DNA of 64,000 nucleotides from Aedes albopictus (taxonomy: Eukaryota > Arthropoda > Insecta > Diptera > Culicidae), in the NCBI RefSeq assembly GCF_035046485.1, contig NC_085138.1, positions 29,041,047 through 29,105,046 of the forward strand, read 5' to 3'. The notes under the pieces are model-generated. The model had not been told where the DNA came from and searched no databases. It saw only the letters and a list, made by a program, of their open reading frames with translations. Position 1 is the first letter of the stretch. Every line of letters starts with the position of its first letter. The translations under genes and the position numbers were made by a program. Positions 10,469 to 42,600 of the stretch are shown here, piece by piece.

Positions 10469-10523
10469 GTTCTTTCTCGTGATCGTAGCCGACAATCACA
10501 AAATAATCGGCGAGCCGTGACAT
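10469..10523 (-). CDS. Sbf: Sbf (MTMR5/MTMR13-like) coding exon 1, on the minus strand
   Basis: Read on the minus strand, the ATG at 10523-10521 opens MSRLADYFVIVGYDHEKE and ends with one base of the next codon, followed by a consensus GTAAGT donor (10468-10463). This is the start of the DENN region of SBF-family proteins (known family N-terminus: M-x-R-L-A-D-Y-F-V). The split codon C|GT joins exactly to the exon beginning at 39670 (Arg, then [17 protein letters not shown]), so phase and protein are both continuous. The oddity is that every other exon is on the plus strand 29 kb away, across the 500-N gap. The upstream start context (CAGAAATGT) is plausible. A processed or duplicated copy is unlikely because the exon ends precisely at a donor. 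I am very sure of the exon identity and less sure of the cause of the strand switch. Confidence 0.93.
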
Positions 10524-11900
10524 TTCTGTGGTGGACGGAGATTTTTTCTGCCTCCTCTAGTTGTAGTAACCGAAGAACGTCCACCCCTGTCCTGTCACGT
10601 CCGCCCACCCCCGCTGAAGCTGCCTTTGCTGCTACTGGAACTGTGCGTGTGCGTTCGTCGCCTACTTTGATAGTGCGCGCTTCCACTGGGATCCTCTTCG
10701 CAGCCTACTTTTTCTCCAGAACACTCTCCGAATTTGGGTTCTTCTGCTTTGTGTTTCGCCTCCTTCGATGTATGACGACGATTATGCTGTTATTCCAGAG
10801 CGCAGCACATACGGCACACTAGTAGTAGGCTGCTACGCCGATGGTTACGATGACGACGACGAAGCCCATATACAAAGACAACACTCTGCTGGCTGAACCG
10901 CGAAGAATCTGTCAACCACTGTCCACCATTTTTATGATTTCACTTGCTGCACTGACGGGATTTTACTGACTGCCTTTTTGCACTTCTTTGATTCCTTTCT
11001 TCACTTGCACAACACTGCTCCCTCTAGACTGGAAATCACTTATTTGAGAATACTCTCTACAAAGGCCATAACATTATCAATCGAACCCGTAGAAAAAGCT
11101 GATAACACCCGAAAAATTTCTTCTCCTTCAAGACAAAATTCCCGTCCACACCACCCGCGATTGCACTCATTTGGGGCACTTCCAACTCGACATTCCCATC
11201 GCCGAAACCGAGAAGCAGAGCAGCGATCTTATTTTTGGGACCGCACCCCAGAAATGCACACCGAAAATCTAAATACTAAAAACACTACTGCCTCTGTAGC
11301 GTCCGCCGCCCGTCACCACCTACTCCCCCTATTTCTTCCCACAGGATGGTAGGTGGACAACGACCACGACGATGACGACGACGGCCGAGGGAAGAGCACC
11401 ACCCCGCGCCCCACAAACACAAGAACCACACACTCTTTCTTCCGACCCAGCCAGCAGACCGCAGTAGCAATCGCCTTTCTTTTTTTTACCCGTTTTTCCT
11501 TTCTTGTACCCACTACTGGACTGGAGCAGTCGCTGCTGCTGGATCACCCGCACCCGCCCGTTTTTCACTCCAGGAGTCCAGGAATTCCAACCCAACTCGA
11601 TGACGACCGTGTACTCCACTCTTTTCTTGCGGATTCCACGAATTCGATTGCGCGACCGTATCACTCCGAAAGGTCCGCGATTTCGATCGACACGGATTGG
11701 CGGAACGGCGACGACGGACGTGCCCAGTCACTCAAAAATTTGCCTGCACTTTTTGATTACTTTGTTGGGGCCTTCCTTTTCCTTACGGTTCCTTTCTATC
11801 TCGGTACCTACTGTCTCGGACGTTATATTTTTGCTTACTGATCTGATCGCACTGATGGCTTCCCGATCTCGAACTCGTCGTCGTCGTCGTCGTCTTTTCG
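10524..11900 (-). promoter_or_regulatory. Probable Sbf 5'UTR and promoter, GC-rich, shared with divergent gene
   Basis: This stretch is visibly richer in G+C than the AT-rich DNA on both sides. Read on the minus strand it has the look of an insect leader: AAGTG/AGTGAA-rich purine tracts with several TCAGT initiator-like pentamers around 10940-11030, leading to the Sbf start at 10523. No convincing TATA box was seen. On the other side lies the 5'UTR of the plus-strand gene at 12374, so the two genes are head to head. The open frames here (for example 11353-11841 + and 10465-10686 -) have no recognisable protein and are compositional. The exact start site cannot be read from sequence. Confidence 0.5.
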
Positions 11901-12295
11901 AAAGTGCAGAGTTTGACGTTTTTGGATTTGAAATGTCACGCACACCACTGCGTGCCAGAGGAAATGTCGTCAAATGACAGCTGTTGCGTGGTTGGGTTTG
12001 TCCGGTTTGCCAACCGGGAAATTTCTCAGAAATGAAAACCAGTTGGTTAAGGTGAAACAGACAATAAATTGAAAAGCACCGACACCCTTTTTTATCAGAA
12101 TGAGGATATTGTATTTTTTGTTGGAAATTGGATTCAGAGGGCGATTCGAGCGAAGGTTTTTTTTTCGTGCATCGCATAATGTGCATGTTTGTTTTTCCGT
12201 GTATCATCAAAATCAAAACAAAAACAACAACAAAAGTGTGGCAATTTCGCGCATGTTGAAGAAATAAAACTATTATTTCAACCCGCGTCAGAAAA

Positions 12296-38960: not shown

Positions 38961-39669
38961 AAAATACGGTCACGAGGATGTTTTCAGAACACGGCACAAA
39001 GTGTAAGTGTAGTCACGACTGGAATGTGTCATATACGATCTGCGTAGGCAAGTGCTTGCCTCATAATTTTCTCCTCCTTCCCTGTATTTGCCTGCAATTT
39101 AACGTGGTGGACGCCATTTTGCCTAAACATAGAAGATTATTAAAACACACATGTTAGTTCCCACCAGTTATCTCATTGGTTCCCTGTGTTAGCGATACTA
39201 GAGTATAGTAACTATGAGAGGGCAATCATGCTCAACCTTTCTCAAATCATACTTCCAAATAAATTTTGAAAAATGCTGGAAGGCATCCCCTTTTTCTTGT
39301 TCGATATTCAACCCAATAGACAAAGCCTGTTTCTCAGGTTAGGATTAGTTTAGCACTTTAATAGTTATCATCTGACTATGTCAACTGATCATTGTTGCAT
39401 TTTTTTTTCTTATAATCAATTCGTTGGGAAGGTTTGTTCTCTTCATCATGAGCGGTTTTTGTCGGCAAAATTGGCTGAAATTTGGTCATATAATTCAGCT
39501 TGATTGGGAAAGATTTCAGGCTAATTTTGAGTTCAATAGGTTTCGAAAAACCCCCCATGATGAAGAGAACAAAACGGCCGAAAATACGTACAAATGAAAC
39601 AGTTGCGATATCACGCTGTTCTTTTATGTTTTAAAAAATTAATACGAGCTATTTTAATTTGTTTTGCAG
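38961..39669. other. Sbf intron just before exon 2
   Basis: Non-coding. Short TTTTTGTCGG-type blocks at 39430-39590 resemble those near 19950 and 20430. The acceptor TTTTGCAG ends at 39669. Confidence 0.5.
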
Positions 39670-42600
39670 GTTCTGGATCTCGCACTGGAAAAATTCTTCA
39701 ACGATTCCCAGAAAAAGATTGGGCCGACACTCCCTTCATCGAGGGCATCGAATGGGTATGTACAAAAGAAACCTTCCATAATATCCGCGTAACTGATTCA
39801 CCCTAAACCCCATGCCGTTTCTAGTTTTGTCAACCGCAAGGTTGGTCCCTGTCAACCGTCCGCCAGGAGCCACAGTTTTTCGTATCAGTCCTAACGGACA
39901 TCGACGCCAATCGGCACTACTGTGCCTGCTTGTGCTTCAACGAGACCATTGCCATCACTCCCAGTAAACCCATCGACGAGGAAGAGGAAGATGACAATCT
40001 GTCGCCCAGTAGTAGAGCCTTGTTGGCCGCCTCTAGTGGACCACCCTCCATAACCCACCACAGTATAATGTACGCTCCGAAGTGTTTGGTGATAGTCTCC
40101 CGGTTGGACTACATCGAAACGTTTCGGAACTGCCTAGGGACTATCTACACGGTGTACCTGGAGAGCCTGAAGTTCCACTTGCATCACCTCATCGGTAGCA
40201 TACTAGGGTGCATTCAGGTTCCTCCTCCCGGTGGTCCACAGGTCCGTTTCTCCATCGGAGCAGGGGACAAACAAGTCCTGCAGCCACCCATTTCCCCCAC
40301 AATCCCCGTAACGGGATCCTGCGTAAGCCTTCTGTTTCATCAACTTGGTATTAAAAATGTGATGCTTCTCTTCTGCGCTGTCATGACCGAGCACAAGATT
40401 CTCTTCCACTCGACGAGCTATTCTCGACTAACCGACAGCTGCCGAGCTCTGACCGCCCTGATGTATCCATTCCGCTACAGTCATGTGTACATTCCGATCC
40501 TGCCAGCTTCGCTGGTGGAAGTATTATCCACACCGACGCCCTTCATCATGGGAATACATAGCTCAATGCAGACGGAAGTTACCGAGGTGCTTGACGTGAT
40601 CATAGCCGACTTGGACGGTGGCTCTATCCACATTCCCCAATCGCTGGTACCTCCACCCGCAGAACTACCCAAGGCCTTACGGGAAGCAACGGAAAACGCT
40701 CTCCAGCAGGTGTTGCACCCGGAGTTGACGCGGGCCGATTTGGCCTTCCCACCGAATAACATCAACAACAATGGGTACAATTTCCGGGAACAGAGGAGCG
40801 ACGAAATGCTGGACAAAGAAATACGGGCAGTGTTCATGAGGTTGTTTGCTCAGCTGTTGCAGGGCTACAGGTCCTGTTTGACGTTGATCCGGATAAATCC
40901 TAAGCCAATCATACAGTTTCACCGGGCGGGTTTCCTGGGTGCGAGGGATTTGGTTGATTGCGATTTTTTGTCACGGGTATTGGATAGCATGTTCTTCACG
41001 GGTTTCGTTACGGAACGAGGGCCACCTTGGAGGCCGTGCGATGCTTGGGATGAGCTGTACAGTGCGATGAACGATTTGCTCAAACAGGAAATGCAGGACC
41101 CCCACTTGGTGTTGATTCACATCCAGGAGCTGGCCAAGCAGCTGTATACCAATGAAAATCCCAGTCCGCAGCCGTACCAGCAGAAGGTTCTGAGGCCACC
41201 GGAAGGTGCCTTCGCTCGAATACACCAACCCCCGATGCCGTTGATCGATTCACAGGAAGTTCAAAATGTGATCAACGAGGGGTTGGCTGCCAATGATCTG
41301 CAGGCGAGGTTACAGACCATAAGGCCTCCGCAACGGATAGTACCGATGGGTCCTTATCTGAAACCGGTTCTCGAATTACGACCAGTGGTCAATAACAGTG
41401 CCCGGAAGCTAGAGGTGTTGAAGAACTGCATCAGCTGTATCTTCGATAACAAGATCACCGAGGCACGAAAGAGTTTCCCGGCTGTTTTGCGGATATTGAA
41501 ACAACGGGACGCCAGGTTAACACTTTGTAGGGAACTAGCGAAGATCGCACATGGAAACAAACAGCTAGATCACCAGCAGTTCGACTTGGTGGTGAAGCTG
41601 ATGAACCGAGCTCTTCAGGACGATTCTTCAAAAGACGAATACGGAGTTGCAGCCGCCTTACTTCCTTTGTCGACGACCTTCTGTCGGAAGCTCTGCACCG
41701 GTGTGATACAGTTCGCGTACACGTGTATCCAGGACCATCCCGTATGGAAGAACCAGCAGTTCTGGGAAGATGCCTTCTACCACGACGTACAGAACTTCAT
41801 CAAAGAGCTGTACCTTCCACGGCAGACTTCGGAAAAGCCCTACAGCAGTTGGGCTTCGGACAGCAATGGCCTTGTTCATTCGACTTCCCGTGATAAAATG
41901 GATCGTTCGACGCTACTCTCGCGAGCGCAGGAGCCTTCTGCGTTGGAGATCGCGGCTGATCAGATGCGGATCTGGCCTACCGTAGACCCAGACAAACAGC
42001 AGGAGCTCATCAGCTCCGAAGAGAAGACCCTCTACAGTCAAGCAATCCACTACGCCAACCGGATGGTATTCTTGTTGATTCCGCAAGACGTCAACCAAGG
42101 AGGTAGAGTACAGAAACTAGATTCCCACGCAGATGACGACGCCAGCGTTTCCAACAGTGTGATAGAATCCCACAGTCACAGCGACCATAGCGATGAAGGT
42201 TTCGAAGACAACGACCCCAGCGAGACAGGAACGGCGGTCGCCAAAATGGTTTGTAAATTCATTGACCGAGTCTGTAACGAGGGAAACGTGACTCCCGAGC
42301 ACCTGCGAAACCTTCACCAAATGGTTCCCGGGGTGATACAGATGCACATTGAAACTCTGGAATCGGTGAATCGAGAAGCCAAGCGGATACCTCCCATCCA
42401 GAAGCCCAAACTTCAATTCCCCAATTTCCTCCAGGGTGAAGAACTCATCGGAGACCCGATGCGGGTGTACCTGCTTGCCGACGGTCGCGAAGAAAAGGAA
42501 GTTGGAACGTCAAATCTCCTACCGGCGGAGGGAGCTCTCTATCTGACGAACTACCGCATAGTGTTCAAGGGAAGTCCGTGCGATCCGTACTGCTGCGAGC

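What the first reader, a model, noticed from the sequence alone, without database searches (positions are those of the whole stretch)
10469..39755. Sbf exon 1 is on the opposite strand from exons 2-8, across the 500-N gap
Seen directly: the minus-strand exon (10523 to 10469, MSRLADYFVIVGYDHEKE + C) with GTAAGT donor joins in exact phase to the plus-strand exon at 39670 (GT TCT GGA...). Together the eight exons give 6060 nt, a whole number of codons. The copia element running into the gap at 17231 does not resume at 17732. The simplest inference is that the whole contig left of the gap is inverted in the scaffold. Alternatives are a genuine inversion with a breakpoint at a repeat, which would break the gene, or trans-splicing of exons from opposite strands, as known for Drosophila mod(mdg4). 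Any gene-order or regulatory inference across this region in the present orientation would be wrong.
Basis: partly seen in the sequence, partly recalled or inferred. Interest (0 to 1): 0.9.

Follow-up and report, generated by a model that had tools for sequence, protein, structure and literature searches.

The report
Mosquito gene split by scaffold misjoin
The first coding exon of a conserved mosquito gene (Sbf/MTMR13) lies on the opposite strand from the rest of the gene, on the other side of a 500-N assembly gap; this is most likely a contig put together the wrong way round, not real biology.

Summary
Eight exons join in phase to 6060 nt and one 2019-aa Sbf/MTMR13 protein. Exon 1 (minus, 10523-10469) carries MSRLADYFVIVGYDHEKE, an N-terminus whose core motif is in 110 of the 120 best homologues listed. 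The window has one N run, 17232-17731, exactly 500. No second homologous exon 1 was found in the window: the best plus-strand stretch matches 6 of 19 residues, against 19 of 19 at 10523. Aedes aegypti, Wyeomyia, Culex and Uranotaenia relatives are single full-length predictions on very long contigs, so the ancestral gene is inferred to be collinear.

Best explanation (about 0.85): an orientation or placement error at the gap, as Hi-C scaffolding makes. The left contig, or a block including it, is reversed or misplaced. The copia argument is weak, because a 500-N gap says nothing about true length. Rivals: a duplicated or haplotig exon-1 segment, a real inversion breaking Sbf, trans-splicing. 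The decisive data (own assembly, reads, second assembly) were out of reach: ten genome searches got no answer. The contig's far end lies outside the window, so 'whole contig inverted' is inferred. Ordinary artefact; low interest.

The parts
10469..10523 (-). Sbf/MTMR13 coding exon 1 (MSRLADYFVIVGYDHEKE plus first base of the next codon), donor GTAAGT at 10468-10463
   Evidence: conserved N-terminus
39670..39755 (+). Sbf exon 2, 86 nt, acceptor TTTTGCAG
39825..45061 (+). Sbf exon 3, 5237 nt: DENN, SBF2, GRAM and myotubularin-like parts
45130..45285 (+). Sbf exon 4
45354..45572 (+). Sbf exon 5
45639..45763 (+). Sbf exon 6
45833..45921 (+). Sbf exon 7
52264..52356 (+). Sbf exon 8 with the stop codon
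17232..17731 (.). the only N run in the window, exactly 500 N: assembly gap, taken to be of unknown true length, lying between exon 1 and exon 2
13927..17231 (+). copia-type LTR element cut off by the gap: presumed 5' LTR start at 13927 (placed by eye), gag and Pol_BBD matches in 16038-17231; holds a nested insertion at about 14370-16180
   Evidence: no second copy of the LTR ends in the window
12374..13280 (+). divergent neighbour gene matching residues 1-302 of the 388 of Aedes albopictus RP20_CCG006557 (291 of 302 identical, one frameshift near 13060); no significant match to the last 86 residues in the window

Best explanation
This is an ordinary, collinear Sbf/MTMR13 gene of an Aedes mosquito (probably Ae. 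albopictus or a near relative, inferred) broken by a scaffolding error at the 500-N gap. The left contig, or a block that includes it, was joined in the wrong orientation or place, so exon 1 with its upstream region faces the gap head-to-head with exons 2-8. In the animal, exon 1 would lie upstream of exon 2 on the same strand, and a long, repeat-rich intron 1 (at least 32 kb if the left contig is simply turned) would be removed by normal cis-splicing. Shown: the exon structure, the conserved N-terminus, the gap between the two parts, and single-protein predictions in relatives. Inferred: that the join itself is wrong, and that turning the left contig sets it right.
For: Exact in-phase join of the two parts and an intact 6060-nt reading frame. 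Exon 1 encodes the family's N-terminus: residues 1-14 are the same in all 17 sequences aligned (window plus 16 chosen of the 120 listed), and M.RL[AV]DYF lies within the first 40 residues of 110 of 120 listed homologues. Ae. aegypti (longest contig of its cluster 409,777,670), Wyeomyia, Culex pipiens pallens and Uranotaenia proteins are full-length predictions covering 100% of the query, which implies same-strand exons there. The only gap in the window lies between the two parts and has a round length. The left contig ends inside a copia element. The plus-strand neighbour gene also runs toward the gap, and its last 86 residues have no significant match in the window (weak matches only, E 1.9 or more). 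Literature, passages only: SALSA2 paper PMC6719893, inversions are common when contigs are short; HiC-Hiker PMC7672694, same point; Ae. albopictus AalbF2 PMC7448346, scaffolded by SALSA2 with the option -c 10000 and no -g in the printed command, which I recall as contig minimum and graph option; AalbF3 PMC7919801, a linkage-based assembly, about half of pseudochromosome 3 had first been placed inverted.
Against: No read, Hi-C map or second assembly was seen. The left contig's length and far end are unknown; a megabase-long contig would make simple flipping fail. Species and assembly are inferred, not given; SALSA2 is reported to make fewer such errors than 3D-DNA. The right contig's first 500 bases have no match of 100 bases or more elsewhere in the window, so that it too ends in a repeat is not shown. 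The neighbour gene carries a frameshift and several residues not shared with its three relatives, so part of the left contig may be a decayed duplicate and not the true upstream flank.
Confidence: 0.85

Rival explanations
1. The left contig is a duplicate (uncollapsed haplotig or paralogous segment) holding a second copy of Sbf exon 1 and of the neighbour gene; the functional exon 1 lies elsewhere upstream.
For: Neighbour gene 12374-13280 is frameshifted, lacks its tail and differs from Ae. albopictus P0121 at 11 of 302 residues (recounted from the two pieces, leaving out the seven residues they share). AalbF2 kept 2.54 Gb after haplotig purging from 5.17 Gb, against an expected haploid size of about 1.25 Gb (PMC7448346, passages).
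Against: Exon 1 itself is kept, with donor and exact phase. No other exon 1 was found in the window. Sequencing error and transposon insertion would also explain the neighbour gene.
Confidence: 0.09
2. A genuine chromosomal inversion with one breakpoint in intron 1, breaking Sbf on this haplotype.
For: Related repeats lie in opposite orientation on both sides of exon 1 (3926-5033 against 23249-27108); short ungapped arms of it are 81-94% complementary. Inversions occur in Aedes (29 inversions and/or translocations called in two Ae. aegypti, PMC6421076, passages).
Against: The longest gapped alignment between those repeats is 79% identical over 828 columns, which I judge a poor substrate for recombination. 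The discordance coincides with an assembly gap. The coding sequence of all eight exons is open.
Confidence: 0.045
3. Exons 1 and 2-8 are really on opposite strands and are joined by trans-splicing, as in Drosophila mod(mdg4).
For: Canonical donor and acceptor in matching phase; [quoted passage not shown] aegypti (PMC4667647, passages).
Against: FlyBase curators call trans-splicing well supported for two D. melanogaster genes, both with a common BTB domain and variable C-termini, and note that in mosquitoes the mod(mdg4) 3' exons appear to be on one strand (PMC4528330, passages). For Sbf only one set of 3' exons was found; none other was sought. A survey of eight insects found no conserved event but mod(mdg4), and the word Sbf does not occur in its main text (PMC4667647; supplements not searched). 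Relatives are full-length predictions.
Confidence: 0.01

Closest known systems
Contig orientation errors of Hi-C scaffolders (SALSA2, 3D-DNA), described in PMC6719893 and PMC7672694
   Same: a gene split across a round-number gap with its two parts on opposite strands; left contig end inside a transposon
   Different: not shown for this contig: its length and Hi-C links were not available
Sbf / MTMR13 (myotubularin-related protein 13), Ae. aegypti P0001
   Same: all eight exons together give a protein differing in 33 of 2022 aligned columns, 3 of them gap columns
   Different: here exon 1 is on the other strand across a gap
mod(mdg4) trans-splicing in Drosophila
   Same: exons on opposite strands would need trans-splicing if the layout were real
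   Different: [quoted passage not shown] only one 3' set was found for Sbf

Membership tests
Sbf/MTMR5/13 pseudophosphatase family | N-terminal uDENN and DENN domains | tested here: met
   PF03456 1.4e-22 and PF02141 4.4e-57 on residues 1-446 of the joined protein
Sbf/MTMR5/13 pseudophosphatase family | dDENN domain | tested here: inconclusive
   PF03455 23.8 bits on residues 1-446 (query cut within the domain) and 22.7 bits on exon 3, both below its 26.8 cut-off
Sbf/MTMR5/13 pseudophosphatase family | SBF2, GRAM and myotubularin-like domains | tested here: met
   PF12335 2e-98, PF02893 3.5e-11, PF06602 6.8e-89 on exon 3
Sbf/MTMR5/13 pseudophosphatase family | C-terminal C1 and PH domains | not tested
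   not scanned in the window's own protein; listed for the near-identical P0001
Hi-C scaffold orientation error | a scaffold gap lies between the discordant parts | tested here: met
   500 N at 17232-17731, the only N run
Hi-C scaffold orientation error | reversing the contig restores a conserved gene in order and phase | tested here: inconclusive
   strand and phase would be restored, but the contig's far end, hence the intron length, is unseen
Hi-C scaffold orientation error | reads or contact map contradict the join | not testable with these tools
   no reads; own-assembly search unanswered in ten attempts
mod(mdg4)-type trans-splicing | common 5' exons shared by many alternative 3' exon sets | tested here: inconclusive
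   one in-frame set of exons 2-8 was assembled and homologues align over the whole length; no search for alternative sets was made
mod(mdg4)-type trans-splicing | independent promoter for the acceptor transcript | not tested
   no promoter search was run upstream of 39670
mod(mdg4)-type trans-splicing | split layout kept in relatives | tested here: inconclusive
   full-length predictions in four culicine genera speak against it, but gene coordinates were not seen

The most novel reading that the evidence does not exclude
A real inversion has separated Sbf exon 1 from exons 2-8 in this mosquito, and the gene is kept alive by trans-splicing between transcripts of opposite strands: an insect trans-spliced gene outside the BTB zinc-finger class of mod(mdg4) and lola.
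Probability: 0.01. Interest if true: 0.85.

Novelty: not a real feature. Interest (0 to 1): 0.12.

Why it matters
It matters mainly for annotation. In this assembly automatic gene finders are likely to lose Sbf exon 1, and gene order or promoter inferences across 10-40 kb would be wrong. A conserved N-terminal exon on the wrong side of a gap is also a cheap marker for finding misoriented contigs in repeat-rich mosquito assemblies.

Tried and rejected
Alternative plus-strand exon 1: tblastn and an ungapped 19-residue scan of both strands found none. A first exon unrelated in sequence cannot be excluded.

Copia as evidence: no LTR copy or continuation right of the gap (one search kept alignments of 60 bases or more and left out two tandem arrays); judged weak, since true gap length is unknown. 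All five alignments across the gap are in opposite orientation, but four belong to one repeat, so this was not counted either.

Repeat-mediated inversion: opposite-orientation repeats exist on both sides of exon 1 but are diverged.

Neighbour gene for synteny: only three homologues were found, none labelled Ae. aegypti, so it could not place the left contig on a chromosome. Pfam gave no family at E 0.001 for the neighbour ORF, and at E 0.01 none for eight of nine further proteins (seven window ORFs and P0121); the ORF at 38364-38816 had one weak match below the family's cut-off.

Presumed hAT-type end at the neighbour gene's truncation point: a pattern search for it gave 3 matches in the window against 2.2 expected by chance, so nothing was concluded.

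Promoter signs: an initiator-like pattern matches three times upstream of exon 1 (no control); not used. Downstream of the exon 1 donor only the donor itself matches GTAAG[TA] in the first 1000 nt; the published trans-splicing motif was not seen, so this is no real test.

Source of the 500 N: that SALSA2 writes 500-N gaps is recalled; the one paper found by that search used 500 Ns for a manual join (PMC9835750, passages). AaegL5 gaps were set to 100 N for submission (PMC6421076, passages), so the window is probably not AaegL5. A search needing all of 'Aedes albopictus', assembly, inversion, Hi-C and misoriented found no paper. From the listings and 42 papers not cited here were seen as listings only. 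PMC10993458 (a further Ae. albopictus assembly, passages) did not help.

Third protein search left unused.
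Full report
What is there. The window holds a complete coding set for Sbf/MTMR13. Exon 1 (55 nt) is on the minus strand at 10523-10469; exons 2-8 are on the plus strand from 39670 to 52356. Joined, they give 6060 nt, no internal stop and a 2019-residue protein; all seven junctions have GT donor and AG acceptor. Pfam finds uDENN, DENN, SBF2, GRAM and myotubularin-like domains; dDENN stays below its cut-off. 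The protein differs from Ae. aegypti myotubularin-related protein 13 (P0001) in 33 of 2022 aligned columns, 3 of them gap columns.

Is exon 1 truly Sbf's? Yes. The search found 2287 proteins at E up to 0.001 among 7985 scored, of which the best 120 were listed. In 110 of those 120 the motif M.RL[AV]DYF lies in the first 40 residues, and in 98 it is the very start; the other ten (P0057, P0069, P0070, P0080, P0085, P0089, P0096, P0105, P0107, P0108) lack it, and I did not examine why. In an alignment of the window's first 446 residues with 16 proteins chosen from the 120, residues 1-14 are invariant. In the window this peptide occurs once: tblastn E about 3e-10 at 10523, next best E 0.22; in an ungapped scan the best plus-strand stretch has 6 of 19 identities. 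So no second homologous exon 1 was found between the gap and exon 2.

What lies between. The only N run is 500 bases at 17232-17731, between exon 1 and exon 2. On its left the contig ends in a copia-type element (gag and Pol_BBD matches; LTR start placed by eye at 13927). No second copy of the LTR ends and no continuation was found in the window. A gap of 500 N is taken as a placeholder, so the missing half of the element could sit inside it; I do not count this as evidence for inversion. The plus-strand gene at 12374-13280 is the divergent neighbour of exon 1. It matches residues 1-302 of a 388-residue Ae. albopictus protein (P0121), with 291 of 302 identical and one frameshift; the last 86 residues have no significant match in the window. 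This too fits a wrong join at the gap, but a decayed duplicate or a transposon-split gene would fit as well.

Why an assembly error is most likely. First, in Ae. aegypti, Wyeomyia smithii, Culex pipiens pallens and Uranotaenia lowii the protein is a single full-length prediction, with longest contigs of 186-410 Mb listed for these clusters, which implies same-strand exons; gene coordinates themselves were not seen. Second, the discordance coincides with a gap. Third, such errors are well documented: the SALSA2 paper says inversions are common when contigs are short (PMC6719893, passages), and HiC-Hiker was written for this problem (PMC7672694, passages). If the window is from Ae. albopictus AalbF2, which is only inferred, that assembly was scaffolded with SALSA2; its printed command has -c 10000 and no -g, which I recall as the contig minimum and the assembly-graph option (PMC7448346, passages). 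In the linkage-based AalbF3 about half of pseudochromosome 3 had first been placed the wrong way round (PMC7919801, passages). AaegL5 gaps were standardised to 100 N (PMC6421076, passages), so the window is probably not AaegL5.

What is not shown. The far end of the left contig is outside the window. A whole-contig flip would give an intron 1 of at least 10,468 + 21,938 = 32,406 nt plus gap plus the unseen part (distances); it is plausible only if the contig is not very long. The own-assembly search got no answer in ten attempts, so contig length, copy number of exon 1 and read support are untested. That the right contig also ends in a repeat is not shown.

Rivals. A duplicated or haplotig segment is the most serious one (about 0.09), given the neighbour gene's frameshift and lost tail and the large leftover size of AalbF2. 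A genuine inversion (about 0.045) would need a breakpoint in the same interval; opposite-orientation repeats exist there, with ungapped arms 81-94% complementary but 79% identity over their longest gapped alignment. Trans-splicing (about 0.01) has no positive support: FlyBase curators call it well supported for two D. melanogaster genes, both with variable 3' ends (PMC4528330, passages), and an eight-insect survey found only mod(mdg4) conserved and does not mention Sbf in its main text (PMC4667647, passages).

Verdict. Interest 0.12.

Noticed in passing
31314-31625 and 36303-36614: A 312-base direct repeat, 100% identical, starting TG and ending CA, with AGTAG on both outer flanks: an apparently young LTR element upstream of exon 2, about half of whose interior is a 64-bp tandem array (33659-36104, 38 copies).
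   Followed up: partly
3684-3909 and 6009-6235: A second LTR-like direct repeat, 99% identical over 227 bases, on the left contig; part of its interior is related to 23249-27108 in opposite orientation at 79-89% in gapped pieces.
   Followed up: partly
about 14370-16180: A nested insertion with GGGTGGCCAC-type inverted ends and a GAACAAC repeat on both sides, lying inside the copia coding region.
   Followed up: partly
12374-13280: Neighbour gene shared with Ae. albopictus RP20_CCG006557 and two unnamed-source proteins, with no Pfam family found; the window copy has a frameshift, is truncated, and shows several residues not shared with the three relatives.
   Followed up: partly
9530-9943 and about 46700-48100: Degenerate GGAATTCCTGG-type 12/24-bp repeat tracts beside exon 1 on its intron 1 side and in intron 7 (seen by eye only).
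   Followed up: no
56336-58316: 31-bp tandem repeat arrays downstream of Sbf.
   Followed up: no
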